Below are positions 7,520 to 32,541 of a stretch of 64,000 nt of DNA, piece by piece (position 1 is the stretch's first letter; every line of letters starts with the position of its first letter). The position numbers were made by a program, and so were the translations under genes. Origin of the DNA: Aestuariivirga sp. (GTDB lineage: Bacteria > Pseudomonadota > Alphaproteobacteria > Rhizobiales > Aestuariivirgaceae); NCBI RefSeq assembly GCF_020252395.1, contig NZ_JADCDB010000024.1, forward strand, positions 1 through 64,000, in the 5' to 3' direction. The notes under the pieces were generated by a model. The model saw only the letters and a list, made by a program, of their open reading frames with translations. It was not told where the DNA came from and did no database searches.

Positions 7520-7531
7520 CAGCGGCTGCGC

Positions 7532-18135: not shown

Positions 18136-18156
18136 GCGCCGGACGGTTCCGCGCTC

Positions 18157-18249
18157 GCGCAACGGGCCCTCAAGTGCACCTGCACTTGAGGGCGGAAAGT
18201 TGCGCCAGCTTTTGACTCTGGAGAATCTTTCGCTTCGCAAGCGATTCTA
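18157..18249. repeat. Palindromic intergenic repeat, family A, copy 1
   Basis: About 93 bp shared with copies at 43908 and 45556. It begins with a strong hairpin (CCCTCAAGTGCA / TGCACTTGAGGG, 18166-18191). This is followed by the conserved GGAAAGTTGCGCCAGCTT block and a second imperfect palindrome around TCTTTCGCTTCGCAAGCGAT. It fills the gap between the GT4 and PhyH genes and just overlaps the PhyH stop codon. Likely a non-autonomous mosaic palindromic element like those of rhizobial genomes; the hairpin could also end transcripts or stabilise mRNA ends. Confidence 0.8.
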
Positions 18250-18999: not shown

Positions 19000-19097
19000 G
19001 ACAGGCCTCGATCTTGACTCGACGGCCCGCAATGCTACAGGCGGCGGATGTTTGTCGAGCAGTTTCTTTTTCCGCAACCGCATGGGGTGAGGGTGGG

Positions 19098-19838
19098 ATG
19101 ATCAGCCAGGCGCTAATCCTTGCGGCAGGCCGCGGTGTGCGGATGGGCCCGCGCGGGCAAAACATTCCCAAGGGCTTCATCGCGCTGGGCGGCGTGCCGC
19201 TGGTGGCGCGCTCGCTGGCCCTGCTGGCAGGCGCAGGCATCCGTGATGTCACCATCGTCACCGGCCACCTCGCCGAATTCTACACACGGCTATCGCCTCC
19301 CACTGGCCTGTCGCTCACCCTTCTGCATAATCCGCTCTATGCCGAAAAGGGCAGCTTCGAAAGCCTGCGCATCGGGCTTTCGGCCATGCGCGGCGATTTC
19401 CTGCTGCTCGAGTCGGACATCGTCTATGAGCCGCGCGCACTCGCCACGGTTCTCGCGTCGCCGCATGACAGCCTGATCCTCGCCTCCGGTCCCACCGGTG
19501 CTGGCGACGAGGTCTATGTCTGGGCGGACGGTGCGGCCGGAACCGCGCGCTTCCGCGCCATGTCGAAGTCGCGGACGGCGCATGCCGATGCGCCCTTTGG
19601 CGAGCTGGTGGGCATCTCGAAGCTGTCGCGCCAGCTCTCCGCCAAACTGGCGCAGCACGCCGCCGAAGCCAGACCCGAGGCCGATTACGAAAGCGCCATC
19701 GTGCGGGCCGCGGGCCACATTGTCATCGCCTGCCAGCGCGTCGATGACCTGCTGTGGGGCGAGATCGACGACGAGGCCATGCTGGCCCGCGTCGAAACGG
19801 CGCTGTGGCCGCGTATCCTGGCAGCGGGCTTGAGTTGA
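19098..19838 (+). CDS. Nucleotidyltransferase, LicC/PntC-like (CTP:phosphocholine or phosphonate type)
   Basis: Protein of 246 aa; GAGGGTGGG directly upstream favours the ATG at 19098. ALILAAGRGVRMGPRGQN with PKGF is the nucleotide-binding loop and Lys of sugar-nucleotide pyrophosphorylases. ESDIVYEP (~residue 115) provides the metal-binding Asp. The middle part, YAEKGSFESLRIGLSAMRGDF, recalls LicC and PntC, which make CDP-choline or CDP-aminoethylphosphonate, rather than hexose enzymes; FGELVGISKLS also fits that subgroup. It should activate a small phospho-alcohol, phosphonate or sugar as its CDP (or NDP) derivative. No PEP mutase or choline kinase is in the window, so substrate is open. 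Divergent from PhyH. Confidence 0.7.
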   Translation: MISQALILAAGRGVRMGPRGQNIPKGFIALGGVPLVARSLALLAGAGIRDVTIVTGHLAEFYTRLSPPTGLSLTLLHNPLYAEKGSFESLRIGLSAMRGDFLLLESDIVYEPRALATVLASPHDSLILASGPTGAGDEVYVWADGAAGTARFRAMSKSRTAHADAPFGELVGISKLSRQLSAKLAQHAAEARPEADYESAIVRAAGHIVIACQRVDDLLWGEIDDEAMLARVETALWPRILAAGLS

Positions 19839-19843
19839 GGCTG

Positions 19844-21529
19844 CTATGACGCCGCCGCGCTGGCGGCCCTGGCCGGCGGCAGCGCCTCCTCGGTCATCTT
19901 GCCATTCTCGAAGGACAAGACCCGGTCGCAGCAATTGAGCCAGGCCAGGTCATGAGTTGACACGATCACCGTCTTGCCTTGCTGCTTCAGCCACGGCACC
20001 AGCACGTTGAAGAAATATTTCCGGCGCTCCGGGTCCTGGTCGGCCACGAACTCGTCGAGCACCAGCACGTTGCGGTCTTCCAGCAGCGCCACGGCCAGCG
20101 CCAGGCGCCGCCTTTGCCCCGCGGAGAGGTCGATGCGGGTGATGCCGTCGGGCTGGATCCGGGTGATGCCGTCGAGATGGACCTTCCTGACCATCTCGTC
20201 GGCCGTGTCCTGCGTCACGTCCTCGAGGCCATAGAGCTGGCGGAACACGTGGAACTGCGTAAAGACGGCGGAGAACTGCGCACGGTAGGCATCCATGCTG
20301 GCGAAATTCACCGGCGCGCCATCGACTTCGATGCTGCCCGCGGTGGGCTCAAGCAGGCCTGTCAGCACGTTCATGAAGGTCGTCTTGCCGGAACCGTTGC
20401 TGCCGACGAGGAACACCACCTCGCCGCGCCGGAGCTCGAAATCGAGCGGGCCGAGCGCGAAGCTGCTCGTCTCGCGCGCGGCATAGCGGGTCTCGATGCC
20501 GCGGAGCGCGATCTTCTCGAACTTCGGCGCTCTGGCGGGCAGGGTGTAGCCCGGGCTTTCGCCGGCGGCGCGCTCGATTTCGGCCAGCTCGCGCGCCAGG
20601 TCGTCGATGCGCATATAGGAGACAAGCGTGCCGATGACCGCGGGATAGCTCGATACGATTTGCTCGAAGGGTGTGAGCGAGAACAGGACGAGGGTCAGAA
20701 CCTGGAAGGTGACGACCGATTCGGTGCGCACCAGATAGGGCACCAGGAACACGATGCCGGCGAACAGCAGGAACTTGAGCGCGTGAACGGAGGATTCGCC
20801 GGTTTCGTAGATGATGTTCACGCGAATGAGCACCTTCCGCAACCGCTCCAGCACGCGGTCGATGTCGCCGCTGAAACTGTCGCGGCGCCGCCGGTGCAGG
20901 CGCAGTTCGCGAAAGCCGCGCAGCATCTCCGACACGCGCTCGAAATAAGCAACCTCCAGCGCGCGCCCATCGTCGTTGAGGCGCGCCATTTTTTTCTGCT
21001 GGAGATGATAGGACAGCGTGCCGCCGATCATGACGAGAATGACGAAAAAGCCCGCCACCAGGGAATAATAGAACACCTGCGGCACGGCGATCGTCAGGAA
21101 GATGACGGCCGGCATCATGTTGAGGACGGTGTTGGTGAAGCCCGCCACGGCGCTCACGTCGGTGGTGAGGATGTGGTAGAGCGCGCCATGCTCGCGCCGG
21201 TCGATAAGGCTCGGCTGGGCCTTCAGCAGACCTCGGATCAGCCGCAGGCGGACGTTGTTGATGACCTTTGTCGTCACCACCGTGGCGAGGATCTGGTACA
21301 GGAAGGTGGCGGCGATCACGGTGACGAACGTGGCGATGAACATCGGCAGCCATACCGACATCGTCTCGTGCACGGGCGACGCTGCGGCCTTGTTCACCAC
21401 CATCATCACCCAGTCGCGCGACAGACCGGCGACCAGCGCCAGCCCCAGCACGAGGTACTTCAGCCGCTGCGGCGCATGCGACCACAGGAACTTCAGCATG
21501 GGCATGAGGCTGTTGAAAATGCTGTTCAC
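19844..21529 (-). CDS. SyrD/PvdE-type ABC exporter (fused permease-ATPase)
   Basis: Protein of about 561 aa. N-terminal half: six membrane helices. C-terminal half: ATPase with Walker A VGSNGSGKTT, signature LSAGQRRRLALAVALLEDR, Walker B VLVLDEFVADQDP and H-loop STHDLAW. The E-F-x-A-D-Q-D-P after Walker B is typical of the cyclic-peptide/siderophore exporter subgroup (SyrD, PvdE) rather than MsbA. It probably acts as a homodimer moving a lipid-linked or amphipathic product out of the cytosol. Start is uncertain: GTG at 21529 chosen, ATG at 21505 possible; the ORF further upstream is not family-like. Divergent from the gene at 21677 with 147 bp between, so a shared control region is likely. 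Confidence 0.85.
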   Translation of the reverse strand: MNSIFNSLMPMLKFLWSHAPQRLKYLVLGLALVAGLSRDWVMMVVNKAAASPVHETMSVWLPMFIATFVTVIAATFLYQILATVVTTKVINNVRLRLIRGLLKAQPSLIDRREHGALYHILTTDVSAVAGFTNTVLNMMPAVIFLTIAVPQVFYYSLVAGFFVILVMIGGTLSYHLQQKKMARLNDDGRALEVAYFERVSEMLRGFRELRLHRRRRDSFSGDIDRVLERLRKVLIRVNIIYETGESSVHALKFLLFAGIVFLVPYLVRTESVVTFQVLTLVLFSLTPFEQIVSSYPAVIGTLVSYMRIDDLARELAEIERAAGESPGYTLPARAPKFEKIALRGIETRYAARETSSFALGPLDFELRRGEVVFLVGSNGSGKTTFMNVLTGLLEPTAGSIEVDGAPVNFASMDAYRAQFSAVFTQFHVFRQLYGLEDVTQDTADEMVRKVHLDGITRIQPDGITRIDLSAGQRRRLALAVALLEDRNVLVLDEFVADQDPERRKYFFNVLVPWLKQQGKTVIVSTHDLAWLNCCDRVLSFENGKMTEEALPPARAASAAAS

Positions 21530-21676
21530 GATCGGGACGCCGGCTCTGCCTGTTGACGTGCTGCACGCCGGCAACCGTGGCTTGCCGAACTGTGCGGCAC
21601 TTGATAGACACAGCCGCGGATGGCCACAATAGGAAGTTGATTTGACCGGTCCTTCGGACATCCCCCCGGCCAGCAC

Positions 21677-23365
21677 ATGACGGACGCTTCGTCAGGCCAG
21701 CCGTTGGTCGTGACTGCGGCCGATCGCCGTTTTGCCCGCACCCTGTCGCAGTTCCTGCTGTCGGCCGAGCGCCACGGCGAGCACCGGCGCTGCCGCTGGG
21801 CCATCTACGACTTGGGCCTTCTCGACGCGGACCGCGCCCTGCTCGCCCGCCGCTTTCCCTGGGCCGCGCTGCGGCCTTTTGTCTTCGCCGGCCTGCCGCC
21901 GCACGTGGCGCTGGCTGCCGGCAGCTATGCCTGGAAGCCGCTTGCCATCCGCGAGGCTGCGGCCGGCGAGGCGGGGCCGGTGTTCTGGTTCGACAGCGGC
22001 ACCGTCCTGCGCCAGCCGCTGGAGGCGGGCCTGCAGGCGCTGCGCGCCCAGGGCTTCTGGGGCCTGCGCAGCCAGATGCCGCTGGCCCAGAAATGCGATC
22101 CGCGCGTTCTTGAGGCGCTCGCCGTGCCGCCCGAGGTCCGGCATTTTCGCGAATATGCCGCTGGTGCGGTCGGCTTCGACCTGTCCTCACCCCTGGGCCG
22201 CCGCCTCGTTGACGGCTGGGCCCGCCACGCCCTGATCCCGGAGCACATCGTGCCGGAGGGTTATGCGCCCTTCCACAAGCATGACCAGGCCCTGCTCAAC
22301 TGCCTGCTGGCGCGGGAGGCTTTTGCCGGCGCCTTCGCCCCAACGACGGCGGAGATCGACATCAGCTCGTTCTCGCCGAGTCCCATGGTATCGACCCGAA
22401 ACTTCGTTTCGGACCATATGCCACTTGCCGCCGACCCCCTGTTGCGCGCCCGCCAGCATCTGTACAAGGCCGCCGACCGGGCCTACCACCGGCTGCGCCA
22501 CTTCGACGATACCCGCATCGACGGGTTATGCCGCCGTTGGAAGGAGCATTTCTCGGTCAGGCTCAGGGATGCCGCAAGCGGCCGTGACACCCCGATCCCC
22601 GGTCCGGCCGGAGGCTACTACGCCGATCCCTTTGTCTGGCAGCGCGATGGCAGGACCTGGCTTTTCGTCGAGGAGTTCGTCTACGCCCGCGACCGCGGCC
22701 ACATCAGCGTGCTGGAGCTTGATGGCGGCGGCCACGTCGCCTCCGCCCGGCCGGTACAGTTCCTGCCGTCTTTTGCGGCACTGGACTGCCATGCCTCGTT
22801 TCCGTTCATCTTCAGCCATGGCGGCGAGATCTGCATGATCCCGGAGACCCATGAGCGACAGGCGATCGACCTCTTCGTCTGCGACCGTTGGCCGGACCGC
22901 TGGCAGCTGGCCCGGCGGCTGCTCTTCGGCATCGACGCGGTTGACACCATGGCGGTCGAGCATGAGGGGCGGTGGTATCTCATCACCTCGGTCCGGGGCG
23001 GGGCATGGCCTAACCGCCACCTCGAGATCCACCATTCCGCCGGTCTGTTGTCCGGTTGCTTCGAACCGCATCCCGTCAACAACCGCGGTGTCTACGGCGA
23101 CAACGATTTTGGCACCGGCCGCAACGCCGGACTCATCACGCGCAATCACGACGGCAGCCTCATGCGCCTCATGCAGCGGAGCAGCCGCTACTATGGCGAA
23201 GGTCTGCAACCTATGCGGATTACCGATCTTTCTCCAGCAAGCTTCACGGAAGTCGCAGCTACGTCAATTGATTTCCTGCCCGGAATTCCACAGAATTTCC
23301 CCTCGCACCACATGTCGAGAATGGGTGATGTAATCGTTTACGACACCCGCGATCGCGCCCGGTGA
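21677..23365 (+). CDS. Two-domain protein: GT-like N-terminus plus GINT1_N-like beta-propeller domain
   Basis: Protein of 562 aa. The first ~245 residues look like a small glycosyltransferase-type domain (VVTAADRRFARTLSQFL at the start, PVFWFDSGTVLRQPLEAG with an acidic site, HKHDQALLNCLLAR later). From ~300 to 560 there is a different domain: GYYADPFVWQRDGRTWLFVE, ASFPFIFSHGGEICMIPET, QAIDLFVCDRWPDRWQLA and DTMAVEHEGRWYLITS. This matches the N-terminal domain of glucosamine inositolphosphorylceramide transferase 1 (GINT1_N), also found in bacterial formyltransferase-like proteins. No signal peptide. It is the first gene before inositol-3-phosphate synthase (120 bp gap). A role in glycosylating an inositol lipid is attractive but inferred. 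Confidence 0.65.
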   Translation: MTDASSGQPLVVTAADRRFARTLSQFLLSAERHGEHRRCRWAIYDLGLLDADRALLARRFPWAALRPFVFAGLPPHVALAAGSYAWKPLAIREAAAGEAGPVFWFDSGTVLRQPLEAGLQALRAQGFWGLRSQMPLAQKCDPRVLEALAVPPEVRHFREYAAGAVGFDLSSPLGRRLVDGWARHALIPEHIVPEGYAPFHKHDQALLNCLLAREAFAGAFAPTTAEIDISSFSPSPMVSTRNFVSDHMPLAADPLLRARQHLYKAADRAYHRLRHFDDTRIDGLCRRWKEHFSVRLRDAASGRDTPIPGPAGGYYADPFVWQRDGRTWLFVEEFVYARDRGHISVLELDGGGHVASARPVQFLPSFAALDCHASFPFIFSHGGEICMIPETHERQAIDLFVCDRWPDRWQLARRLLFGIDAVDTMAVEHEGRWYLITSVRGGAWPNRHLEIHHSAGLLSGCFEPHPVNNRGVYGDNDFGTGRNAGLITRNHDGSLMRLMQRSSRYYGEGLQPMRITDLSPASFTEVAATSIDFLPGIPQNFPSHHMSRMGDVIVYDTRDRAR

Positions 23366-23484
23366 CGGAGCTTTCCAAGCGTCCGGCAGCTTTCCAACGA
23401 CGCCGATGATCCGCTTGTCTAACCACAAATTCTGTGACAGTTGTCCCAGTAACTCGAATTTGAATTGTTCTTGCGGGGGATATC

Positions 23485-24573
23485 GTGATTCGCACCGCGA
23501 TCGTGGGTGTTGGGAACTGCGCCAGTTCACTGGTTCAGGGCGTTCATTATTGCCGCGCCAAGGGCGCGTCCGCCCTCGGCGTCCCCTTCCCCAAGCTGGG
23601 ACCTTATACCCCTGAAAACATTGAATTTGTTGTGGCCTTTGACATTGATGGACGCAAGGTGGGGCGTGATCTGTCGGAGGCCGTGTTCGCCGCGCCGAAC
23701 TGCACCGCCGTCTTCCACGCCGACGTGCCGAAACTCAATGTCGCGGTGGGCCGCGGACCGAGCCTCGACGGCATGACGGCCTTCCTCGGAAACCAGGCGT
23801 CCCAGCGCAGCTTCGTGCCCAGCCCGGCCCCGGAAATGACGGCCGCTGAAGTGGTCTCTGCCCTCAAGGCGGCGCGGACCGAGGTGGTAATCAGCTTTCT
23901 TCCCGTCGGCTCGCAACAGGCGAGCGAATTCTATGCCAGCTGCGCTCTCGAAGCCGGTGCTGCCTTCGTCAACGCCATTCCGGTGTTTCTGGCCAGCAAC
24001 CCCTCCTGGGCAAACGCCTTCAAGCAGCGCGGACTGCCGATTCTCGGAGATGATTTCAAGGCGCAGGTCGGCGCGACCATCGTCCACCGCATGCTTGCGC
24101 ATCTGTTCGACATGCGGGGTGCGGTTCTCGACCGGTCCTACCAGCTGAATGTCGGCGGCAACACCGACTTCCTGAACATGATGGACCACAACCGCCTGCT
24201 CAGCAAACGCGAATCCAAGACGGAAGCGGTGCAGTCCGTGCTCGAAAACCGCCTCAGCGACGACAATGTGCGGATCGGGCCCTCCGATTACGTTCCGTGG
24301 CTGAACGACCAGAAGGTCGGCTATGTCCGTCTTGAGGGCCGGCTGCTCGGCGGCGTCCCCATGAACATGGAGGTCAGGCTTTCGGTGGAGGATTCGCCCA
24401 ATGCCGCGGCCATGGCGTTGTCGGCGATCCGCTGCGCCAAGATTGCGCTCGACCGCAAGCTGTCGGGGGCGATCTGGGAGGCTTCCGCTTTCCTGTTCAA
24501 GCACCCGCCCCGTCAGCTCCAGGATGACGAAGGCATGCGACTGCTCGTGGACTTTGCCGACGGAAGGCTCTGA
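23485..24573 (+). CDS. ino1: Inositol-3-phosphate synthase
   Basis: NAD-dependent isomerase converting glucose-6-phosphate to 1D-myo-inositol 3-phosphate in the cytosol. Recognised by AIVGVGNCASSLVQGVHY (Rossmann loop, residues 4-21), LGDDFKAQVGATIVHR, QLNVGGNTDFLNMM with the Lys-containing SKRESKTEAVQS, GPSDYVPWL, and VEDSPNAAAMAL. These features place it in the short form (about 360 aa) of actinobacteria and archaea rather than the 500-aa eukaryotic one. Start is GTG at 23485 preceded by GCGGGGGA. The 3-ketosphinganine-reductase-like gene begins 8 bp downstream. Supplies the inositol headgroup for the surrounding lipid genes, or a compatible solute; the former fits the neighbours better. 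Confidence 0.93.
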   Translation: MIRTAIVGVGNCASSLVQGVHYCRAKGASALGVPFPKLGPYTPENIEFVVAFDIDGRKVGRDLSEAVFAAPNCTAVFHADVPKLNVAVGRGPSLDGMTAFLGNQASQRSFVPSPAPEMTAAEVVSALKAARTEVVISFLPVGSQQASEFYASCALEAGAAFVNAIPVFLASNPSWANAFKQRGLPILGDDFKAQVGATIVHRMLAHLFDMRGAVLDRSYQLNVGGNTDFLNMMDHNRLLSKRESKTEAVQSVLENRLSDDNVRIGPSDYVPWLNDQKVGYVRLEGRLLGGVPMNMEVRLSVEDSPNAAAMALSAIRCAKIALDRKLSGAIWEASAFLFKHPPRQLQDDEGMRLLVDFADGRL

Positions 24574-24581
24574 TCCGAGAC

Positions 24582-25388
24582 ATGCCGGGGCACGCAATTA
24601 TCACGGGCGGAAGCAGCGGCATCGGTCTGGCGGCCGCAAAGCAGTTGTGCTCGCGCGGTGTTTCGGTTTCCCTCGTTGCCCGCAATCGCGACAAACTGGC
24701 CGCGGCACGGGAGATGTTGCTCGCCGCAGCAAACGGCCAGGTGGCCGTTCAGACATTCTCGGCAGATGTGCGCGACCCCGATGGTTTGAAGCAGGCGATT
24801 GCCTCCGCAGTGGACAGCCTCGGCCCGCCCGGCTGGGGCATTTGCTCGGCCGGGATCGTGATCCCGGGAACCTTCGTCAAGCAGACACTGCGCGATCATG
24901 AAGACCAGTGGCGAACCAACTACCTCGGTTCGCTGCAGTTCGCGCATTTCATTCTGCCGCATCTGGAGAAATCATCGAGGCCCAGGCTGGTGCTTATCGC
25001 ATCGGGTGCGGCCTTCGCCGGCCTGTACGGATACAGCTCCTACGGCCCAGCCAAGTTCGCGGTGCGCGGACTGGCGGAAAGCCTGCGGGTGGAACTCAAG
25101 CCGCGCAATGTCTCCGTCACCATCGCGTTTCCCGGCGATACCGACACGCCGCAACTGCGCTCGGAGTTGAAGTTGCGGCCGAAAGTGACGAGCCAACTGG
25201 CCAGCGGCGTCGGGGTGATGAGCCCCGATGCCGTTGCAAAGGGCATCATCGCGGCAGCAGAGCGCGGCGATTTCCAGGTCACATTTGGCTGGCAGCTCCG
25301 CCTGCTGGCGCGAACTCACAGCCTGATCGCCCCGCTTCTCCGCAGCTATCAGGATCGGCTGGTCAAGCGTTCCGGCGAGGACTTGTGA
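24582..25388 (+). CDS. SDR oxidoreductase, 3-ketodihydrosphingosine reductase-like
   Basis: Protein of 268 aa. AIITGGSSGIGLAAAKQL (residues 5-22) is the NADP loop, and YSSYGPAKFAVRGLAESLR holds the catalytic Tyr-x3-Lys with upstream Ser (LIASGAAFAGLYG). Several stretches resemble eukaryotic KDSR more than general SDRs: SLVARNRDKLAAA, the FSADVRDP cofactor segment, TNYLGSLQFAHFILPHL, and in particular FPGDTDTPQL (KDSR: PPDTDTPG). This suggests reduction of 3-ketosphinganine to sphinganine, so a sphingoid base may be made. No serine palmitoyltransferase lies in the window. It is 8 bp after inositol-3-phosphate synthase and overlaps the CdsA-like start by 4 bp (GTGA). Confidence 0.72.
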   Translation: MPGHAIITGGSSGIGLAAAKQLCSRGVSVSLVARNRDKLAAAREMLLAAANGQVAVQTFSADVRDPDGLKQAIASAVDSLGPPGWGICSAGIVIPGTFVKQTLRDHEDQWRTNYLGSLQFAHFILPHLEKSSRPRLVLIASGAAFAGLYGYSSYGPAKFAVRGLAESLRVELKPRNVSVTIAFPGDTDTPQLRSELKLRPKVTSQLASGVGVMSPDAVAKGIIAAAERGDFQVTFGWQLRLLARTHSLIAPLLRSYQDRLVKRSGEDL

Positions 25389-26281
25389 CGCCACTCATCA
25401 CCGTCGCCCTGCTGGCGCAGGCGATCGGGTTTGCCTTTGGCTTCGGCGCCCTGCTTCTCGGAATTCTCACCGTCCTTCCGGGCAGCCGGTCTGTGGCGCG
25501 TCAGCTTTGGCCCGTTCTCGCGTCGGAGGCCGCAATCCTGGCCGTTGGCGTGCTGCCGTGGTTGTTGCCGCGAGACTTCCTCTTGCCCCTTATACTGATT
25601 GCCGCTGCACGCATCGGCTATGAAAGCGGCTGCGTGCATGGCGTGACAGCCGGAAGGAACTTCAACGCCGGCTATCTGCTTGCACTCGTTGCAGCCAGCG
25701 GACTGGCATGGTTCATGACGTCCGCCTATTTTCTTCCGGCTGCGGCATTCTTGGCTGGCGTGGCGCTGGCGGCAACACGTCTTACAGCAGGAAAATCCGT
25801 CATCGGAAGTCTGGCACGCTTCTCCGTGTTCCCACTCCTGCCGCTTGCTGCATTCAGCCACGCCGCGCATGATGCAGACTCTGCACCGCTGCTTGTGCTG
25901 GCTTTCTTCCTGGTGGAGATCCTCGACAGTTTTTCCCTGCTGGGCGGAAAGCTTCTTGGCAGAACGCCGCTGGTTCCGCGTCTCAGTCCGCGCAAGACCT
26001 GGGAAGGGCTCGCGACCGGACTTTCTGCGATGCTCATCGCCGTGCTGTCTCTTGCCATGTGGCTGGATCTGCCGCTATTGCAAGGGCTCGTTGCCTGCGG
26101 GCTTGTGGCGATTGCGGCCATCGCAGGCGATTTGCTGGGTTCCCTCGCAAAGCGGCACGCCGGCGTGAAGGACTATCCGGCCGTCATGACCGTCCAGGGC
26201 GGTCTTCTCGACATCGCCGATTCGTGGATCGTCGCTGGCCCCTGTCTGGTGGGGTTCTTCGCATTGCTCGGCTGGCGCTAG
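25385..26281 (+). CDS. Divergent CdsA-like (CTP:phosphatidate) cytidylyltransferase
   Basis: Protein of 298 aa from a GTG at 25385 that overlaps the SDR stop. About eight membrane helices. The C-terminal signature reads SLAKRHAGVKDYPAVM then GGLLDIADSW (residues ~250-285). This keeps the S-x2-K-R-x4-K-D and G-G-x2-D-x2-D-S core of CdsA but lacks the PGHGG His and the Arg of the usual LDRxDS. Earlier SPRKTWEG also matches the family (SPKKTxEG). It should make a CDP-activated lipid from CTP and a phosphatidate-like acceptor. Substitutions and its place in the operon hint at an unusual acceptor. It converges with the MaoC-like gene (4 bp overlap). Confidence 0.8.
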   Translation: MTPLITVALLAQAIGFAFGFGALLLGILTVLPGSRSVARQLWPVLASEAAILAVGVLPWLLPRDFLLPLILIAAARIGYESGCVHGVTAGRNFNAGYLLALVAASGLAWFMTSAYFLPAAAFLAGVALAATRLTAGKSVIGSLARFSVFPLLPLAAFSHAAHDADSAPLLVLAFFLVEILDSFSLLGGKLLGRTPLVPRLSPRKTWEGLATGLSAMLIAVLSLAMWLDLPLLQGLVACGLVAIAAIAGDLLGSLAKRHAGVKDYPAVMTVQGGLLDIADSWIVAGPCLVGFFALLGWR

Positions 26282-26679
26282 CTTTCTGCGCCGACGCCGC
26301 CGTCCAGCTTCACGAGGCGCGCATCGGCGACCGCCACGAGAACGCCCGTTCCGTCATGTGCCATAAGGCGAAGATGAGGCAGTCCTCCGGCTGGAGCGAT
26401 TGGCCTTGCGGAAATAGTCAAGCAAGAGCCCACGGCAACAGGGCGGGTGAAGTGCACGCGGAATTCGCCGATCCGATGCCCCGGGATCCTTTCAAGAAAG
26501 GCCTCGAAACGGCCTGCGATGAACATGCCGTGCAACACGGCGCCCCGGAGGCCTGCGGCACGCGCACTCTCATCGGAAAGGTGGAGCGGGTTCGTATCGC
26601 CCGAGGCCACGGCGAATGCCTGCACCTGCGCGGCCGTCACCGGGGCGGTCGTTTCCGCATCGGGGAGTTCAAGCGGCAT
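26278..26679 (-). CDS. MaoC-like hotdog dehydratase
   Basis: Protein of 133 aa. Start at the ATG at 26679; the frame upstream lies inside the preceding gene. SGDTNPLHLSDESARAAGLR (residues ~28-47) is the hydratase-2 motif with the Asp and His active site. GAVLHGMFIAGRF and VHFTRPVAVG complete the hotdog fold. It catalyses (de)hydration of 3-hydroxyacyl chains bound to CoA or ACP. Last gene of the reverse acyl operon (plsC-like, ACP, KAS, hotdog, MaoC) and overlaps its upstream neighbour by 11 bp. With the neighbouring half-hotdog protein it may form a heterodimeric dehydratase. Confidence 0.8.
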   Translation of the reverse strand: MPLELPDAETTAPVTAAQVQAFAVASGDTNPLHLSDESARAAGLRGAVLHGMFIAGRFEAFLERIPGHRIGEFRVHFTRPVAVGSCLTISARPIAPAGGLPHLRLMAHDGTGVLVAVADARLVKLDGGVGAES

Positions 26680-27052
26680 GCTTCGGGTCCGGCGCAAGAA
26701 CGATCTCCGAGACAAGGACGGCGCAGCATCGTCCGGCTGTGTCCCGCAATGTCTGCTCGATCCGCAATCGATCATTGCCGAGGTCCAACAGGCGGATGTC
26801 GCAGCAGTAGTCAGCGGCGCTGCGGAGCGGCCGGTCTGCCCGGTATTCCTGCGCGACGTGGATGGGCAAGCGGTCCCGGCTGAGTTCCGTCAGGGCCGCC
26901 ACCACCGTTTCCGCCGTTGCAGCGCGAAGCGCCATACCGAGCATCGCGCCACCGCTGCCGACACCGAGCGCCATGCGGTAAGCTTCGACCTCTTCCGGTT
27001 CCATACGGAACGGGAAGGTTGGCACGGCGAGCCATCCTCCAGCATCAGTCAC
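26669..27052 (-). CDS. Hotdog-fold protein, possible partner of the MaoC-like dehydratase
   Basis: Protein of 127 aa with a GTG start at 27052, 6 bp after the KAS stop. VPTFPFRMEPEEVEAYRMAL at the N-terminus and the later IHVAQEYRADRPLRSAADY resemble the non-catalytic N-terminal MaoC half seen in split or fused hydratases (FAS1_DH_region type). The catalytic D-x4-H motif is missing here, while the next gene has it. A heterodimer of the two products is therefore likely. It probably acts on the same ACP-linked chain as the adjacent KAS and ACP. Identification rests on weak motif similarity plus context. Confidence 0.55.
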   Translation of the reverse strand: MTDAGGWLAVPTFPFRMEPEEVEAYRMALGVGSGGAMLGMALRAATAETVVAALTELSRDRLPIHVAQEYRADRPLRSAADYCCDIRLLDLGNDRLRIEQTLRDTAGRCCAVLVSEIVLAPDPKHAA

Positions 27053-27058
27053 GGCCCA

Positions 27059-28273
27059 CTACGCCCTGCGCAGGATCAGGCTGGCATTGATGCCGCCAAA
27101 GGCGAAGGAATTCGACATCGCAGCAGGAATGTCGACGGCTCGTGCGACGTTCGGCACCGGATCGGGAATGCAGTTACGGTCCGGTCCGAGCCAATTGAGG
27201 GTGGGCGGTGCAATCCCGCTCTCGAGGGCCCGCACGGTGATCAGAAGCTCGAGTGCCCCCGCAGCGCCCAGTGTGTGGCCGTGAACCGGCTTCGTTGAGG
27301 AGACCGAAAGCTTATCGAGCCTTCCGCCGAAGACTCGCCGCAGCGCCTCGCTTTCTGACCGGTCGTTGAGAATGGTGCCCGTGCCATGTGCATTGACGTA
27401 GGCGATGTCTGCCACATCGAGCTTAGCGTCTGCCAGGGCAAGCTCCATCGCGCCGGCTGCGCCCGCCGCGTCAGGCCGCACGATGTCACCGGCATCGCTG
27501 GTCGTACCGAAACCGGCGAGCTCCGCACGGGGACGGACCCCACGCGCACGGGCGGACTCCTCTGTTTCAAGCATGAGCACTGCCGCGCCTTCGCCAAGGG
27601 TCATGCCATCGCGCCCTGAGGAAAATGGACGGCATTCGCCCAAGGTCATCACGCGAAGCGTCTCCCAGGCGCGGAAAGTGGCCGGCGTAATGAGACACTC
27701 GCTTCCGCCCACCAGGGCCCGCTCGGCCACGCCCTGCCGTAACAGCATCAGCCCAAGACTGATCGCTTGGCTCGCAGAGGAGCACGCGCTGGACACCGCC
27801 AGCGACATTCCACGCGCCCCGAATGCCATGGAAAGCTGTGACGCCGCTGCATTGGGCATGACCTTGGGAATGGTCATGGGATCTGTCCGCTCGCGCGTCT
27901 GATAGAACTTGAAATGCTCGATATCGGACGTCGTGGCGCCGCCGATGCTGCTGCCGACGAGAACAGCGGTGCGCGGACCCAGAGCCTCTGCCAGAGGCCA
28001 ACAGGCATCGGCGAGCGCCTCACGCGCCGCCACGATTGCCATCTGCGCGAAGCGGTCCGTCGACCGGACGATCTCGGGCGGCAGCAGACTGGCCGCATCG
28101 AAGAAGGGCAGATGCGCTGCCCGCTTGACCAGCTGATTGGCGGTGCGTGGCAGAGCAATTTCCTGGACACCCGTTCGGCCATCCCTTGCGGCCTGCCAGA
28201 GAGCTTCCGCTCCAAGGCCTAGGGCCGTGACGGCCCCCAATCCGGTGACGAAGACGCGCGGGCGGGAGATCAT
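27059..28273 (-). CDS. Beta-ketoacyl-ACP synthase (KAS I/II, FabF-like)
   Basis: Condensing enzyme joining malonyl-ACP to an acyl chain. The Cys-His-His triad is present: nucleophile in AVSSACSSASQAI (~residue 160), then NAHGTGTILNDRSE (~295) and SSTKPVHGHTLGAAGALE (~330). 404 aa, family length. The start overlaps the ACP stop by one base (TGATG). With a dedicated ACP and two hotdog proteins but no ketoreductase in the operon, it looks like a specialised elongation or unusual-chain module rather than bulk fatty-acid synthesis. The opposing KDSR-like SDR could supply a reduction step. Confidence 0.92.
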   Translation of the reverse strand: MISRPRVFVTGLGAVTALGLGAEALWQAARDGRTGVQEIALPRTANQLVKRAAHLPFFDAASLLPPEIVRSTDRFAQMAIVAAREALADACWPLAEALGPRTAVLVGSSIGGATTSDIEHFKFYQTRERTDPMTIPKVMPNAAASQLSMAFGARGMSLAVSSACSSASQAISLGLMLLRQGVAERALVGGSECLITPATFRAWETLRVMTLGECRPFSSGRDGMTLGEGAAVLMLETEESARARGVRPRAELAGFGTTSDAGDIVRPDAAGAAGAMELALADAKLDVADIAYVNAHGTGTILNDRSESEALRRVFGGRLDKLSVSSTKPVHGHTLGAAGALELLITVRALESGIAPPTLNWLGPDRNCIPDPVPNVARAVDIPAAMSNSFAFGGINASLILRRA

Positions 28274-28530
28274 CAGGTGATCGTCTTCTCCAGATGCGGC
28301 CGCAGCGCCGCCACGAATTCACCCACCGTGCGGGCATCGGACAGCGAACCATCGACAGGGATATAGGCTCCGAACTCCTCCTCCACCGCCATCAGGATCA
28401 CGATGACGTCAGCCGAAGCGATCCCAAGACTGTCGAGGGTTGCATCAGAAGCGAGTTTCGCGCGGTCAATCAGTCCCTCCCGCGACACAATCGCGAGCAG
28501 CCGATCGTCAATTTCGTCTGAAGCATCCAT
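28273..28530 (-). CDS. Acyl carrier protein
   Basis: Protein of 85 aa, acidic. The phosphopantetheine Ser lies in LDSLGIASADV (residues ~34-44), where the DSL core is intact. Four-helix ACP pattern with VIVILMAVEEEFG after the site. ATG at 28530; stop overlaps the KAS start by one base. A dedicated ACP beside KAS and hotdog genes is common for secondary lipids such as sphingolipids, arylpolyenes or long-chain lipid A acyls. It differs from the usual housekeeping AcpP, which carries GADSLD. About 105 bp separate it from the PlsC-like gene, in which no feature stands out. Confidence 0.9.
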   Translation of the reverse strand: MDASDEIDDRLLAIVSREGLIDRAKLASDATLDSLGIASADVIVILMAVEEEFGAYIPVDGSLSDARTVGEFVAALRPHLEKTIT

Positions 28531-28635
28531 CTAAGGCAAATAATCCCGGCGCAAGAATGGGTTGTAACAAACAATCTAGAAAGGCGCGGATCAACTGTCT
28601 ACAGACGTTCGCTGAAATCCGGCCGTGTCCGCCGC

Positions 28636-29376
28636 CTAAACGCGCAGCTCGGCGAGTTTGCCGGTGGCCTCCTCGATTTCGCTTTGAAGACGCTGTCTGA
28701 ATGCCGCGCGTGGCAGGCCGGTCCCGATCGGCGGCAGGAATTCGAGAACGATGAGGCCTGCGCGGGGCGCCAGCGATCTTGCAGGCCAAACCCGGCCTGA
28801 ATTCACTGCCACGGGCACGCAGTCGCACTTGAGGATTGCATAAAGGAGTTCGACTCCCCGCTTGTAGTCAGGCGGCGCGCCCACCTCGCGTCGCGATCCC
28901 TCCGGGAAAATCAAGACGGGGCGGCCCTGCGCATGGGCTTGGCGCGCCGCACCTAGGAGATGCCGTGCTGATTCGAGGTCTCCGGAGCGGTCGACCCCGA
29001 TGTGGCCGAGGCGCCGCAGCGCCCAGCCGAACAGGGGAATGGACAGCAGTTCCCGTTTCAGGATAATGACGGGATCTTCCAGAATGTATTGCAGGATGAG
29101 GGTCTCGAAGCCGGACTGATGCTTGGCGGCGACAAGGACGGCCCCCTTTGCCGCATTGAGGCTACCCCTGATCTCCCAGCGGAGCCCGAGTACGGCGCGC
29201 AGCAGCCAGAGGACACTCCGGAGAAATGATCGCACGATGGCGAGACACCAGCTGCGGGGAGCGAAGAAAATGGGCAGCAACAAGGCATAACACAGGGTGA
29301 GCGCGGCCACGGCTGTCCAGAACACGATCAGCTGCGCCACTCTTCGCGGCAAGAACAGGGCCGCATCCGGCGCCAT
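28636..29376 (-). CDS. 1-acyl-sn-glycerol-3-phosphate acyltransferase (PlsC-like)
   Basis: Protein of 246 aa. AAKHQSGFETL contains the catalytic H-x4-acidic motif (Glu in place of Asp, as in other alphaproteobacterial homologues), and FPEGSRREVG is motif III. Two membrane segments lie near the N-terminus (AQLIVFWTAVAALTLCYALL). It transfers an acyl chain from ACP or CoA to a lysophosphatidate-type acceptor at the inner membrane. First gene of the reverse acyl operon. The ACP-dependent chain made by the downstream KAS may be its donor. Divergent from the GT32 gene with 229 bp between starts. Confidence 0.88.
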   Translation of the reverse strand: MAPDAALFLPRRVAQLIVFWTAVAALTLCYALLLPIFFAPRSWCLAIVRSFLRSVLWLLRAVLGLRWEIRGSLNAAKGAVLVAAKHQSGFETLILQYILEDPVIILKRELLSIPLFGWALRRLGHIGVDRSGDLESARHLLGAARQAHAQGRPVLIFPEGSRREVGAPPDYKRGVELLYAILKCDCVPVAVNSGRVWPARSLAPRAGLIVLEFLPPIGTGLPRAAFRQRLQSEIEEATGKLAELRV

Positions 29377-29605
29377 TGCCGTTATGCCTCAGACGGGAGA
29401 ATGCGCTGTGTCCTCAATGCCTTCTCCAGAGTTTTGCCGTTGGCCGGAAACCGGGCTAAAGATGTTGCTGGCGGCGGTCAAGTCCGTTGGCCCCAAAGGA
29501 CAAGGATTGGCAGTCTGACGCTGCAGCAAGGCCAGAGTAGTGACGTTCTTCCAGGAGATTTCAGTAGGGTCCGCCCCGCTCGCGGCGCCAGCGATAGGAA
29601 CACCG

Positions 29606-30511
29606 ATGACAATCCCAAAGAAACTGTTCCAGACGGCGAAGGCCTACGACATTCTGCCGGGCGAGATCAAAGACAATATCCGCAGCCTGAGGGACCTCAA
29701 TCCCGATTGGGACTACAGCTTTTTTGACGACGCCGCAGTCAAGGCCTATCTGGAAGCACACCTCAGTCCTGAGGACTGGGAGGCGGTCCAACTGGTGAAC
29801 CCGCGCTTCGGCGTGGTCCTCGCCGATCTATTCCGATATCTGGTCATCTATCGTGAGGGTGGTGTCTATCTCGACATCAAAAGCACTGCACGCAAGCCGC
29901 TCACGGCCGCTCTGGATCTGGATTGCGGATTTGTCCTTTCGCAGTGGCCCAACAAGATCGGTGAGAACTATGTGGGCTATGGCCTCCACCCCGAACTCTC
30001 GGATGTTCCGGGTGGCGAGTTTCAGCAGTGGAACATCATCGCGGCGCCACGCCACCCGTTTCTGCAGGCGGCCGTGCGGCAGGTGATCGTAAACATCAAG
30101 TCTTACACACCCGGGCGCTTCGGCACCGATGCCTATGGCGTGTTGCGCCTGTCAGGACCGATCGCCTACACGCGGGCCATCTATCCGCTGCTCGACCACT
30201 TTGCCTACCAGGCGGTCGATCTTGCCCAATGGGGCATCCACTACAGTCTCTATGGCAACGACGGCGGCCTGCAGCAACAGCATCAGTCCGCGGTGCCAGG
30301 CCATTATTCCAAGGTCCGGGAACCGGTCGTGCTCAAGGAGGTCTATGTCGAACCACCCCAACCCGTCATCGCCAAACTCGCGGACCTGCTCGCAAAGGAA
30401 CTTCGCGACAACATTGGTCTCGTGCTGAAGCTTGCCGTTCTCTCGATTGCCGCGACGCTTGCACTGGTGGTTGCCCTCGTGTTTCTGGCGGCAGTTGCCA
30501 TATTTCGCTAG
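29606..30511 (+). CDS. GT32-family glycosyltransferase with C-terminal membrane segment
   Basis: Protein of 301 aa. The ATG at 29606, with AGGAAC just upstream, starts right before PKKLFQTAKA, the usual GT32 beginning (IPKxIHQ). A GTG at 29540 would add 22 unlikely residues. LADLFRYLVIYREGGVYLDI (~80-100) is the family core with the DxD-type site (here YLDI-K). The last 35 residues (LKLAVLSIAATLALVVALVF) form one or two membrane helices. GT32 includes yeast mannosyltransferases acting on inositol phosphoceramide (Sur1, Csh1) as well as capsule enzymes. Given the inositol and KDSR-like genes nearby, a glycolipid acceptor is plausible. Confidence 0.78.
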   Translation: MTIPKKLFQTAKAYDILPGEIKDNIRSLRDLNPDWDYSFFDDAAVKAYLEAHLSPEDWEAVQLVNPRFGVVLADLFRYLVIYREGGVYLDIKSTARKPLTAALDLDCGFVLSQWPNKIGENYVGYGLHPELSDVPGGEFQQWNIIAAPRHPFLQAAVRQVIVNIKSYTPGRFGTDAYGVLRLSGPIAYTRAIYPLLDHFAYQAVDLAQWGIHYSLYGNDGGLQQQHQSAVPGHYSKVREPVVLKEVYVEPPQPVIAKLADLLAKELRDNIGLVLKLAVLSIAATLALVVALVFLAAVAIFR

Positions 30512-30575
30512 CAGGGACTGGCCGGTGGATGTTTCATGCAGTTCGGGCCATTGCGGCGGGTGAGGCGGGTGACGG

Positions 30576-31502
30576 ATGACCGATACGGTAACGCGCACAA
30601 GCATTGCCATACTCGTATGCACGTGCGATCGTCCCGAACTCTTGCGGCGCCTCCTGGGCGCATTGGCGCGGGAAGTGAAAGACTCGGACTGCTTAACGCT
30701 GGCGGTGGTCGTCATCGATAATGGTGCAATTCCGGTTCGGCACATTGCGGAGCAATTCGGACACGTCCTGCCTGTCAAGTACCGGCGTCTTGAGCGGAGC
30801 GGGCTTGTTGTCGCCCGCAATGCAAGTCTCGGCGTGGCATTGGCGCACAAGCCGGAATTCCTGGTCTTCATTGACGACGATGAGGTGCCGATGCACGGCT
30901 GGCTGGGCAATCTCGTGGCGGCGGCCGTGACGGGGCAGCTGGACATTGCGACAGGACCCGTCGTTCCGGATTTTGCGGCGCCGCCACCTGATTGGGCGAT
31001 CGACTTCTTCCGCAAGTCAGGCAGCACATACTGCACGTCCAATCTCATCCTCCGGACGTCCATGCTCCTGCCTGGCGAAGAAAACTGGTTCAATCCGGCA
31101 TTCAACCTCACGGGTGGCGAAGACAACGAGTTCCTGAACCGGCTGGCGCGGCAGGGAGCGGTCCACGGCATTGCCGGGAATGCAATCGTCAGCGAAACCA
31201 TCCCCGGCGGGCGCCTGACACTCGGATTTGTGCTGCGGCACGGGCTTCGAGACGGCGTGGTTGTGGCACAGAAAGTGATGATCGGCAAAGAAGGCCCCGC
31301 GAAAAAGATGTTGCTCTGCCTCGGCAAGGCGGCGCAGAAGGCGGGCTTCGGACTGAATCACCTTTTCTGGTCTCTCACCGACCCAGCCAGATTCTATCGC
31401 GCCGCTGATGATTTCGCGGCCTGCGGTGGCATCCTGTCACGGCTTGCGGGTGTGCCGTTCGCCTTCTACGGCACAGCAGGCAAGCGACGAGAATTCATCT
31501 GA
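30576..31502 (+). CDS. GT2-family glycosyltransferase
   Basis: Protein of 308 aa. SIAILVCTCDRPELLRRLLG at the N-terminus is the GT-A nucleotide-sugar start. FLVFIDDDEVPMHGWLGNL (~residue 95) contains the DxD metal site. LTGGEDNEFLNRLARQG holds the ED catalytic-base region. A weak hydrophobic stretch near the C-terminus could lie at the membrane surface. It is 64 bp after the GT32 gene on the same strand, likely the same transcript. It is the last intact gene before the IS remnant. Probably the second sugar-adding step of the same glycan or glycolipid. Confidence 0.85.
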   Translation: MTDTVTRTSIAILVCTCDRPELLRRLLGALAREVKDSDCLTLAVVVIDNGAIPVRHIAEQFGHVLPVKYRRLERSGLVVARNASLGVALAHKPEFLVFIDDDEVPMHGWLGNLVAAAVTGQLDIATGPVVPDFAAPPPDWAIDFFRKSGSTYCTSNLILRTSMLLPGEENWFNPAFNLTGGEDNEFLNRLARQGAVHGIAGNAIVSETIPGGRLTLGFVLRHGLRDGVVVAQKVMIGKEGPAKKMLLCLGKAAQKAGFGLNHLFWSLTDPARFYRAADDFAACGGILSRLAGVPFAFYGTAGKRREFI

Positions 31503-32466: not shown

Positions 32467-32541
32467 TGGAGCGGGCGAGGCGAATCGAACGCCCGACCCT
32501 AACCTTGGCAAGGTTATGCTCTACCCCTGAGCTACGCCCGC
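32467..32541 (-). tRNA. tRNA-Gly (GCC anticodon)
   Basis: Reading the minus strand, GCGGGCGTAGCTCAGGGGTA starts the acceptor and D arms. CTTGCCAAG is the anticodon arm with GCC. TCGGGCGTTCGATTCG gives the T arm with the GTTCGAT loop. The 3' acceptor strand pairs fully with the 5' end, followed by U and an encoded CCA. Total 75 nt. Its 3' end faces the IS remnant and the glycan/lipid region, the usual orientation for integration next to tRNA genes, although no integrase or att repeat was found in the window. Confidence 0.97.

What the first reader, a model, noticed from the sequence alone, without database searches (positions are those of the whole stretch)
21677..31502. Candidate inositol-containing (possibly sphingoid) glycolipid pathway in an alphaproteobacterium
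Seen together: GINT1_N-like protein, inositol-3-phosphate synthase, KDSR-like SDR and divergent CdsA in one run; an opposing ACP-KAS-hotdog-hotdog-PlsC operon; then GT32 (the family containing inositol-phosphoceramide mannosyltransferases) and GT2. Known: inositol lipids in bacteria are described mainly from actinobacteria and Bacteroidetes, and bacterial sphingolipid genes in Caulobacter lack an inositol synthase. Inferred: these genes make a glycosylated inositol (sphingo)lipid. Missing from the window: serine palmitoyltransferase and ceramide synthase.
Basis: partly seen in the sequence, partly recalled or inferred. Interest (0 to 1): 0.85.

Follow-up and report, generated by a model that had tools for sequence, protein, structure and literature searches.

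The report
Inositol-lipid gene island in Alphaproteobacteria
A bacterium of the genus Aestuariivirga and many other Alphaproteobacteria carry a long, conserved set of genes, on which no paper was found here, that looks built to make, decorate and export an inositol lipid, perhaps with a sphingolipid-type anchor, a kind of molecule known mostly from eukaryotes.

Summary
Upstream lie the decisive missing genes: a CDP-alcohol transferase resembling phosphatidylinositol-phosphate synthase, a PgpA-type phosphatase, DUF4833, an FGGY kinase, a GT4 and a Stealth protein. The same genome (Aestuariivirga) also holds, on another contig, a Caulobacter-like ceramide operon (aasR-cerR-acpR-spt) and a candidate ceramide synthase. 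A core of INO1, KDSR-like SDR, divergent CdsA, LptF/G-like permeases, GT4, FGGY and PIP synthase is syntenic in many Rhizobiales and Rhodobacterales. There it often begins with an acyl:amino-acid synthase of its own clade, in genomes that mostly lack canonical serine palmitoyltransferase (suggestive of replacement; p 0.004-0.09 by how it is counted). The SDR groups with TSC10. The KAS-ACP-PlsC block belongs to some members only. Most likely this is an uncharacterised inositol-(sphingo)lipid synthesis and export island. The inositol-phospholipid part is well supported by sequence; the sphingoid anchor is plausible, not shown; no lipid was measured.

The parts
11758..12723 (-). p321, conserved protein without Pfam/NCBIfam match; GT-A glycosyltransferase-like by eye only
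   Evidence: homologues in 15 of 80 named PIPS loci; no family
12822..13307 (+). PgpA-family phosphatase, candidate PIP phosphatase
   Evidence: PF04608 120 bits; 32 of 80 named loci
13297..13818 (-). DUF4833 protein, N terminus signal-like by eye, beta-rich model without a solved relative
   Evidence: PF16117 97 bits; AF2 pLDDT 88.8; no PDB match at E<=0.001; 17 of 20 INO1-centred loci
13815..14414 (-). CDP-alcohol phosphatidyltransferase, candidate phosphatidylinositol-phosphate synthase
   Evidence: best NCBIfam archaetidylinositol phosphate synthase 118 bits (cut-off 180), PIPSynth 77 bits (cut-off 170); family profile hits 6h53 first, motif DxxDGxxAR..GxxxDxxxD and SYxKARA/ERxER kept
14411..15943 (-). 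FGGY carbohydrate/polyol kinase, overlaps the PIP synthase gene by 4 bp
   Evidence: PF00370/PF02782; XylB 266 bits, below cut-off; best solved match xylulose kinase; 66 of 80 loci
15989..16993 (+). Stealth-family sugar-phosphate transferase
   Evidence: PF11380 102 bits; 38 of 80 loci
16966..18240 (-). GT4 glycosyltransferase, nearest NCBIfam model MshA (D-inositol-3-P glycosyltransferase, 55 bits, cut-off 462.5)
   Evidence: 65 of 80 loci, 60 of 80 at 35% identity or more
18247..19083 (-). PhyH-type dioxygenase (accessory)
   Evidence: PF05721; 5 of 80 loci
19098..19838 (+). MobA-like nucleotidyltransferase, possible CDP-polyol/CDP-inositol synthase
   Evidence: PF12804; Arch_glmU and inositol-1-P cytidylyltransferase models equal at 45 bits, both below cut-off; 34 of 80 loci
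19844..21676 (-). ABC exporter (fused TMD-NBD)
   Evidence: PF00664/PF00005; 44 of 80 loci at 35% identity or more
21677..23365 (+). two-domain protein: GT8-like N domain plus GINT1_N/GH43-like propeller (accessory)
   Evidence: AF2 model pLDDT 81.5 and Foldseek; 10 of 80 loci
23485..24573 (+). inositol-3-phosphate synthase INO1
   Evidence: PF01658; 379 bits to inositol-3-phosphate synthase 1gr0
24582..25388 (+). KDSR-like short-chain reductase
   Evidence: best PDB match TSC10 8jat; one side of a branch with TSC10, 100/99
25385..26281 (+). divergent CdsA-like CTP transferase
   Evidence: PF01148 100 bits; invariant S..KR....KD...GG..D..D in 11 members, with the GHGG and DR of CdsA (recalled) altered
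26278..26775 (-). MaoC-type hotdog dehydratase
   Evidence: PF01575 69 bits
26669..27052 (-). small protein, second hotdog only by position
   Evidence: no family
27059..28273 (-). beta-ketoacyl-ACP synthase II type
   Evidence: PF00109/PF02801; FabF 380 bits, below cut-off
28273..28530 (-). acyl carrier protein
   Evidence: PF00550 27 bits; DSL Ser site
28636..29376 (-). PlsC-type acyltransferase
   Evidence: PF01553; FPEG motif and H-x4-E
29540..30511 (+). GT32-type glycosyltransferase (local)
   Evidence: PF04488 37.6 bits; no match in 32 and 20 INO1-centred loci
30576..31502 (+). GT2 glycosyltransferase (local)
   Evidence: PF00535 46 bits; no match in 32 and 20 INO1-centred loci

Best explanation
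The locus is a dedicated inositol-lipid synthesis and export island. INO1 makes inositol-3-phosphate; the divergent CdsA makes a CDP-lipid; the PIP synthase-like enzyme joins the two to a lipid-phospho-inositol-phosphate; a PgpA-type phosphatase removes the terminal phosphate; GT4, Stealth and local glycosyltransferases extend the head group; the ABC exporter, and in relatives LptF/G-like permeases, carry the product towards the outer membrane. In most other carriers a dedicated amino-acid:acyl synthase (AOS) and the KDSR-like reductase could supply a sphingoid-type base, so the final lipid is more likely than not an inositol-phospho-sphingolipid. In Aestuariivirga, which has no such AOS in the locus, the base would come from the canonical SPT/CerR/CerS-like set on another contig, which also has LptF/G genes. 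Shown by sequence: gene identities, synteny, genome content. Inferred: substrates, order of steps, anchor, export. Unknown: the role of the FGGY kinase and how phosphoinositol would reach a sphingoid anchor.
For: PIP synthase-like gene with the full motif; PgpA; INO1; KDSR-like SDR. SPT over NCBIfam cut-off (588.6, cut-off 500) in an aasR-cerR-acpR-spt order, that of Caulobacter CC_1165-1162 (PMC11324152, passages). Synteny in 20 INO1-centred loci that I chose: CdsA 19, DUF4833 17, LptF/G 17, GT4 17, NTase 17, SDR 16, CPT2 15, PIPS 14, FGGY 14, AOS 13 of 20. INO1 in 40 of 41 PIPS-locus genomes. An AOS at E<=1e-60 in 36 of 41, within 12 kb of INO1 in 28. Replacement pattern: canonical SPT in 1 of 36 AOS-positive and 3 of 5 AOS-negative genomes (p=0.0036); weaker if only AOS lying in the cluster counts (1 of 30 against 3 of 11, p=0.052; within 12 kb of INO1, 1 of 28 against 3 of 13, p=0.086). 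An independent alphaproteobacterial locus (G355, L066) interleaves SPT, ACP, AasR-, CerR- and CerS-like genes, LptF/G, INO1, an inositol-P cytidylyltransferase-like NTase, a CDP-alcohol transferase and a GT32-type gene.
Against: No PAP2/AUR1-type inositol-phosphoceramide synthase among the window proteins scanned. 32 of the 41 genomes examined for CerS lack canonical SPT, and 30 of those 32 lack the candidate CerS too, so N-acylation is unexplained there. The cluster AOS scores best against bioF (316 bits), then Kbl (278) and SPT (272), none over cut-off, and its place between SPT and Kbl is unresolved. Eight of the 36 AOS hits are not near INO1 on the assembly, and those at about 40% identity were not shown to be of the clade. 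In the window itself PlsC-CdsA-PIPS-PgpA would make ordinary diacylglycerol-based PI. In the family, 66 of 69 genomes have SPT but 13 of 69 have INO1, so SPT there proves nothing about the island. The genomes are related, so Fisher p values are indicative only.
Confidence: 0.5

Rival explanations
1. The product is a diacylglycerol-based phosphatidylinositol glycolipid: KAS, ACP and hotdog tailor an acyl chain, PlsC and CdsA make a special CDP-diacylglycerol, PIPS and PgpA finish PI. The SDR reduces a 3-ketoacyl chain or acyl-DHAP, and the genome's ceramide pathway is unrelated.
For: PlsC, CdsA, PIPS and PgpA are all in the window. KAS, ACP and PlsC genes also lie within 5 kb of PIPS in L093 and L121. 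The known bacterial PIP synthase uses CDP-diacylglycerol (PMC9246714, passages). The AOS-for-SPT replacement loses significance under stricter counting.
Against: The SDR falls with TSC10 and is kept in Shimia and Stappia loci in which no KAS or PlsC was matched. The AOS next to INO1 in 28 of 41 genomes has no evident role in making diacylglycerol.
Confidence: 0.33
2. Inositol is not put on a lipid: INO1 feeds a soluble phosphodiester (di-inositol phosphate, through the NTase and a CDP-alcohol transferase) or inositol phosphate in a capsule (Stealth).
For: NTase and CDP-alcohol transferase resemble the two halves of the bifunctional IPCT/DIPPS model. Stealth is a sugar-phosphate transferase family (function recalled). 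Traces of inositol occur in B. thetaiotaomicron capsule (PMC9246714, passages).
Against: CdsA, AOS, KDSR-like SDR, LptF/G-like permeases and a Frag1/DRAM/Sfk1 protein travel with it. The PIPS profile hits PIP synthase structures before the IPCT/DIPPS structure 4mnd. CPT2 was not found in the window.
Confidence: 0.1
3. Several unrelated operons that happen to be neighbours.
For: GT32, GT2, PhyH, GINT1 and the KAS block are conserved in few loci.
Against: The core recurs together across genera and families.
Confidence: 0.04

Closest known systems
Bacteroides thetaiotaomicron inositol lipid cluster BT_1522-1526
   Same: MIPS, CDP-alcohol PIP synthase and PgpA-type PIP phosphatase together, in a sphingolipid maker (PMC9246714: section 10 and passages; PMC8791184: passages)
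   Different: No AUR1-like BT_1522 or GtrA-type BT_1524 seen among the window proteins; adds a dedicated CdsA, KDSR-like SDR, FGGY kinase, Stealth, GT4, DUF4833 and, in relatives, AOS and LptF/G-like permeases; MIPS is of the mycothiol INO1 type
Bacteroides vulgatus/Prevotella alternative cluster (NTase + CDP-alcohol transferase + HAD; PMC9246714 section 10)
   Same: NTase with a CDP-alcohol transferase beside MIPS; closest to locus L066 of G355 and to the NTase-CPT2 pair of many clusters
   Different: No HAD gene noted, though none was searched for; the window has the NTase but no CPT2
Caulobacter ceramide operon CC_1165-1162 with CC_1154 and lptF2/G2 (PMC11324152, passages)
   Same: aasR-cerR-acpR-spt order, LptF/G and an acyltransferase candidate in the own genome (L005)
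   Different: Lies on another contig than the window; Caulobacter decorates ceramide with phosphoglycerate; the word inositol does not occur in that paper's main text
Actinobacterial PI synthesis (Ino1, PIPS)
   Same: INO1 (379 bits to 1gr0) and PIPS (profile 66 bits to 6h53); the mycobacterial origin of both chains is recalled
   Different: Gene context and the extra lipid and export genes

Membership tests
PIP-route inositol phospholipid synthesis | inositol-3-phosphate synthase | tested here: met
   379 bits to 1gr0 over residues 2-357; PF01658 over cut-off; TIGR03450 not over cut-off
PIP-route inositol phospholipid synthesis | CDP-alcohol transferase of PIP synthase type | tested here: met
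   motif and SYxKARA/ERxER columns shared with 6h53 (that these line the inositol-phosphate pocket is recalled); NCBIfam equivalog cut-offs not reached
PIP-route inositol phospholipid synthesis | PIP phosphatase | tested here: inconclusive
   PgpA family over Pfam cut-off, but the substrate may be phosphatidylglycerophosphate; 32 of 80 loci
PIP-route inositol phospholipid synthesis | inositol lipid in extracts | not testable with these tools
   needs mass spectrometry
Bacteroides-type inositol phosphoceramide pathway | AUR1/BT_1522-like synthase | tested here: inconclusive
   no PAP2-type family hit among the window proteins scanned; the rest of the genome was not searched for it
3-ketodihydrosphingosine reductase | groups with a characterised KDSR | tested here: met
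   best PDB match TSC10; 11 cluster SDRs plus TSC10 against 7 other SDRs, support 100/99; one KDSR only, on a long branch, few outgroups
3-ketodihydrosphingosine reductase | activity on 3-ketosphinganine | not testable with these tools
   enzyme assay needed
Serine palmitoyltransferase (own genome, L005 9148-10356) | over curated equivalog cut-off and in an aasR-cerR-acpR-spt order | tested here: met
   588.6 bits, cut-off 500; 451 bits to SPT 2x8u; order
Serine palmitoyltransferase (cluster AOS of relatives) | falls in an SPT model or clade | tested here: not met
   L122 AOS over no SPT cut-off; 23 cluster AOS form a clade of their own, 100/99
Ceramide synthase CerS (own genome, L005 14676-15818) | N-acyltransferase co-occurring with SPT | tested here: inconclusive
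   in 9 of 9 canonical-SPT genomes and 2 of 32 others examined; no Pfam or NCBIfam hit; not compared with the CC_1154 sequence itself
Plant GINT1 glucosamine IPC transferase | GT64 catalytic domain (recalled) | tested here: not met
   only GINT1_N found in Pfam; N domain resembles LgtC and glycogenin
GT32 inositol-phosphoceramide mannosyltransferase | conserved with inositol genes | tested here: inconclusive
   window GT32 matched in 0 of 32 and 0 of 20 INO1-centred loci and 1 of 80 PIPS loci (flanks too short for the window's layout); but another Gly_transf_sug protein lies beside INO1 in G355

The most novel reading that the evidence does not exclude
A third bacterial route to inositol sphingolipids, widespread in Alphaproteobacteria: a previously unrecognised AOS clade plus KDSR makes a sphingoid base without canonical SPT or CerS, a divergent CdsA activates a lipid as its CDP form, a PIP synthase adds inositol phosphate, and an Lpt-like system exports the glycosylated product to the outer membrane. 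Aestuariivirga uses the Caulobacter-type SPT in place of the AOS.
Probability: 0.3. Interest if true: 0.8.

Novelty: new variant of a known kind. Interest (0 to 1): 0.6.

Why it matters
Inositol lipids are described as relatively rare in bacteria (abstract of PMC9246714). The same paper (section 10) found a lipid consistent with inositol phosphoceramide in the alphaproteobacterium Novosphingobium acidiphilum with no known genes to account for it. A defined gene island in named strains of Stappia, Shimia and Aestuariivirga makes the question directly testable, and would extend inositol (sphingo)lipids, KDSR-type chemistry and a further Lpt-like export line to many Alphaproteobacteria. It also gives DUF4833 (no paper found) and the cluster AOS clade a probable context. 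Whether N. acidiphilum itself has such a locus was not tested.

Tried and rejected
GINT1_N as an inositol-lipid marker: rejected (1 of 33 INO1-positive and 21 of 352 INO1-negative class genomes). My own guess that DUF4833 is BT_1524 was wrong: that gene is GtrA-type, and DUF4833 rings in none of 14 control genomes. DUF4833 fold search: no PDB match at E<=0.001. Island integration at tRNA-Gly 32467-32541: no second copy of its 3' end in the window. FGGY substrate: the profile matches xylulose, gluconate and glycerol kinase structures, no decision. Literature: eight searches listed no paper that I recognised as being on this island; the library holds only open-licence PMC papers and I read listings, not all texts.

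Other INO1 loci (L058-L060 in the family; L062-L064, L067-L078 and L080 in the class) lack the core and were not pursued; 12 of the 32 non-own class hits were not fetched with a wide neighbourhood. INO1-positive class genomes have canonical SPT more often (9 of 33 against 40 of 352, p=0.024), weak and not corrected for kinship. From the AOS tree four of the 25 loci with AOS were left out because their hit was shorter than 1000 bases (L097, L112, L119, L133); two more rows (L061, L079) were added.

Full report
1. Observation. The window is contig C17:1-64000 of a 3.49 Mb, 46-contig genome rated 100% complete. The genus is Aestuariivirga by inference: the same-genus locus G385:C20 lies on a contig of 505,639 bases, the length of A. 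litoralis NZ_QKVK01000003.1, and the two places agree.

2. Upstream lie PgpA, DUF4833, a CDP-alcohol transferase, an FGGY kinase, Stealth, GT4, PhyH, an NTase and an ABC exporter. DUF4833/CDP-alcohol transferase and CDP-alcohol transferase/FGGY overlap by 4 bp. The CDP-alcohol transferase is closest to archaetidylinositol phosphate synthase and PIP synthase models, below their cut-offs. A profile of nine family members finds 6h53, a CDP-diacylglycerol-inositol phosphatidyltransferase structure, first, and keeps the catalytic aspartates and the SYxKARA and ERxER segments. With INO1 (379 bits to 1gr0), the CdsA-like gene and PgpA, every step from inositol-phosphate synthesis to PI has a candidate.

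3. Ceramide genes. A search of the genome with a BioF/Kbl-family model found three acyl:amino-acid synthases: one beside a threonine dehydrogenase-like gene and one ALAS-like (both by eye), and an SPT over the NCBIfam cut-off (588.6 against 500; 451 bits to SPT 2x8u). The SPT follows an AMP-ligase, an epimerase-type reductase and an ACP, with LptF/G, a DAGK-type kinase and a 380-residue acyltransferase candidate nearby. This is the order of the Caulobacter ceramide genes (PMC11324152, passages read). That candidate CerS occurs in 9 of 9 genomes with canonical SPT and 2 of 32 without (one of the two a weak 28% match), among 41 examined.

4. Conservation. INO1 occurs in 33 of 385 class genomes, 13 of 69 family genomes and 9 of 37 of the genus, so it is patchy. 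Window proteins were searched against 32 INO1-centred loci (12 of 12 non-own family hits and 20 of 32 non-own class hits). INO1-SDR-CdsA with PIPS, FGGY and GT4 is seen in genus members whose contigs reach far enough (L050-L052, L054, L056), in another genus of the family (L057) and in two other families (L061, L079); the other loci lack this core. A scan of the 84,980-species collection with the PIPS alignment kept 80 of 84 relatives, by their titles mostly Rhodobacterales and Rhizobiales (Shimia, Stappia, Mesorhizobium and others), with two beta- and one gammaproteobacterial MAG and two odd MAGs. Within 10 kb of PIPS, tblastn at E<=1e-6 matched FGGY in 66, GT4 65, ABC 63, CdsA 55, SDR 49, LptF/G 49, Frag1 46, INO1 40, Stealth 38, NTase 34, CPT2 33, PgpA 32, DUF4833 27, AOS 25, p321 15, GINT1 10, KAS 7, ACP 5, PhyH 5, PlsC 2, MaoC 1, GT32 1, GT2 1 of 80. 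At 35% identity or more: FGGY 66, GT4 60, CdsA 53, SDR 48, ABC 44, INO1 39, Frag1 37, Stealth 37, NTase 34, PgpA 31, LptF/G 28, DUF4833 26, AOS 25, CPT2 9. 57 of 80 hold FGGY, GT4 and at least one of CdsA, SDR and INO1 at that level. Three of the 80 loci (L092, L137, L165) also gave query proteins. The 10 kb flanks miss genes that lie farther off, as INO1's far side and the KAS block do in the window's own layout. Twenty loci re-centred on INO1 (20 of the 40 INO1-positive genomes, chosen by me) show AOS-DUF4833-INO1-SDR-CdsA-(PgpA)-LptF/G-NTase-CPT2-GT4-Stealth-FGGY-PIPS-Frag1-ABC as the common order: CdsA 19, DUF4833 17, LptF/G 17, GT4 17, NTase 17, SDR 16, CPT2 15, PIPS 14, FGGY 14, AOS 13, Stealth 13, Frag1 10, PgpA 7 of 20. 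Against this, L190 held INO1 alone, and the Mesorhizobium loci carry only PgpA and PIPS of this set.

5. Sphingoid evidence. The SDR's best solved match is TSC10, a 3-ketodihydrosphingosine reductase (106 bits, next 86; as a profile 158 and 141). Eleven cluster SDRs plus TSC10 stand against seven other SDRs with support 100/99; TSC10 is a long branch and the only KDSR in the tree. By NCBIfam the window SDR's best models are general SDR models below cut-off. An AOS related to that of Shimia is present at E<=1e-60 in 36 of 41 PIPS-locus genomes, within 12 kb of INO1 in 28 of those 36. The 23 sampled AOS form their own clade. For the Shimia protein the best PDB match is SPT 8guh/3a2b (217 bits, Kbl 198), but by NCBIfam bioF comes first (316) and no model passes its cut-off, so I do not call it an SPT. 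Canonical SPT occurs in 6 of 50 PIPS-locus genomes (50 of the 80 loci tested). In the 41 tested for both, 1 of 36 AOS carriers and 3 of 5 non-carriers have it (p=0.0036; the other two non-carriers are Mesorhizobium). Counting only AOS that lies in the cluster gives p=0.052, and within 12 kb of INO1 p=0.086. So replacement is suggested, not shown.

6. An independent pointer. In G355 (L066), a different alphaproteobacterial locus puts SPT (667 bits, over cut-off), ACP, LptF/G, a CDP-alcohol transferase, an NTase whose best model is inositol-1-phosphate cytidylyltransferase (123 bits, below cut-off), INO1, a Gly_transf_sug (GT32-type) protein, an AasR-like ligase, a CerR-like epimerase, a fatty acid hydroxylase and a GNAT related to the candidate CerS within about 14 kb; G246 (L065) has part of it on a short contig. 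Inositol and canonical ceramide genes are thus physically joined elsewhere in the class.

7. GINT1_N is in 22 of 385 class genomes, but in only 1 (the own one) of the 33 with INO1. It does go with SPT (10 of 49 against 12 of 336, p=9e-5; kinship uncorrected). The window's GINT1 protein is predicted as a GT8-like domain plus a GH43-like propeller. GT32 and GT2 of the window have no match in the 32 and 20 INO1-centred loci. The KAS-ACP-hotdog-PlsC block occurs in three genus members (L049-L051; absent in L052), and KAS, ACP and PlsC within 5 kb of PIPS in L093 and L121; KAS, with or without ACP, lies 1-6 kb from AOS in L094, L104, L105 and L114.

8. Mechanism. Best reading: PIP-route inositol phospholipid, glycosylated and exported, with a sphingoid-type anchor more likely than not for the family at large. 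The FGGY kinase (66 of 80 loci) and the transfer of phosphoinositol to a sphingoid anchor are unexplained. No LptF/G, Frag1 or CPT2 relative was found in the window. A plain diacylglycerol PI glycolipid is the main rival, and for the window's own genus, with PlsC in place, it is about as likely.

9. Novelty. The parts are known families. The combination, the AOS clade, the divergent CdsA and the spread through Alphaproteobacteria were not found in print in the searches (open-licence library, listings). Heaver et al. (PMC9246714, section 10 read) left unexplained a PI-DHC-like lipid in an alphaproteobacterium. Names such as mycobacterial for 1gr0 and 6h53, Sphingobacterium for 3a2b/8guh, and the GT8, GH43 and GT64 labels are recalled.

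Noticed in passing
L066 970-14202 (G355) and L065 (G246): Compact locus joining SPT/ACP/AasR-like/CerR-like/CerS-like genes with INO1, an inositol-P cytidylyltransferase-like NTase, a CDP-alcohol transferase, a GT32-type gene, fatty acid hydroxylase and LptF/G: a candidate CDP-inositol-type inositol ceramide pathway.
   Followed up: partly
class genomes: GINT1_N-domain proteins co-occur with SPT rather than INO1 (10 of 22 carriers have SPT); in G026 and G158 the two lie about 7-9 kb apart.
   Followed up: partly
L081 8336-9085, L079 3273-4028, L056 8158-8844, L087 10651-11418: A Frag1/DRAM/Sfk1-type membrane protein (PF10277 over cut-off in the first two; below it in L122 and L103; the family that I recall as including PGAP2 of GPI remodelling) matched in 46 of 80 loci, often next to the ABC exporter; not found in the window.
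   Followed up: partly
L126, L127, L129, L130, L134, L138, L141, L142, L160: Mesorhizobium genomes carry a PgpA-PIPS pair without the rest of the island; the two tested (L127, L134) have INO1 elsewhere and neither AOS nor canonical SPT.
   Followed up: no
L062-L064, L077: Another alphaproteobacterial INO1 neighbourhood with, by eye, a methyltransferase, a histidine-phosphatase-like gene, epimerases and several glycosyltransferases; unrelated to the island.
   Followed up: no
window 31550-32200: Integrase-core gene (rve, rve_3), IS3-like by eye, between the island and tRNA-Gly 32467-32541; no repeat of the tRNA 3' end in the window.
   Followed up: yes
window 137-9876: Run of TPR-containing genes, a GT8 and a Sulfotransfer_2 gene beside the island, apparently also present in A. 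litoralis (L082).
   Followed up: no
L158, L150, L156, L164, L167: PIPS relatives in gamma- and betaproteobacterial, Omnitrophota and Micrarchaeota MAGs; L158 and L150 carry much of the island, L164 and L167 only PIPS, possibly binning errors.
   Followed up: no
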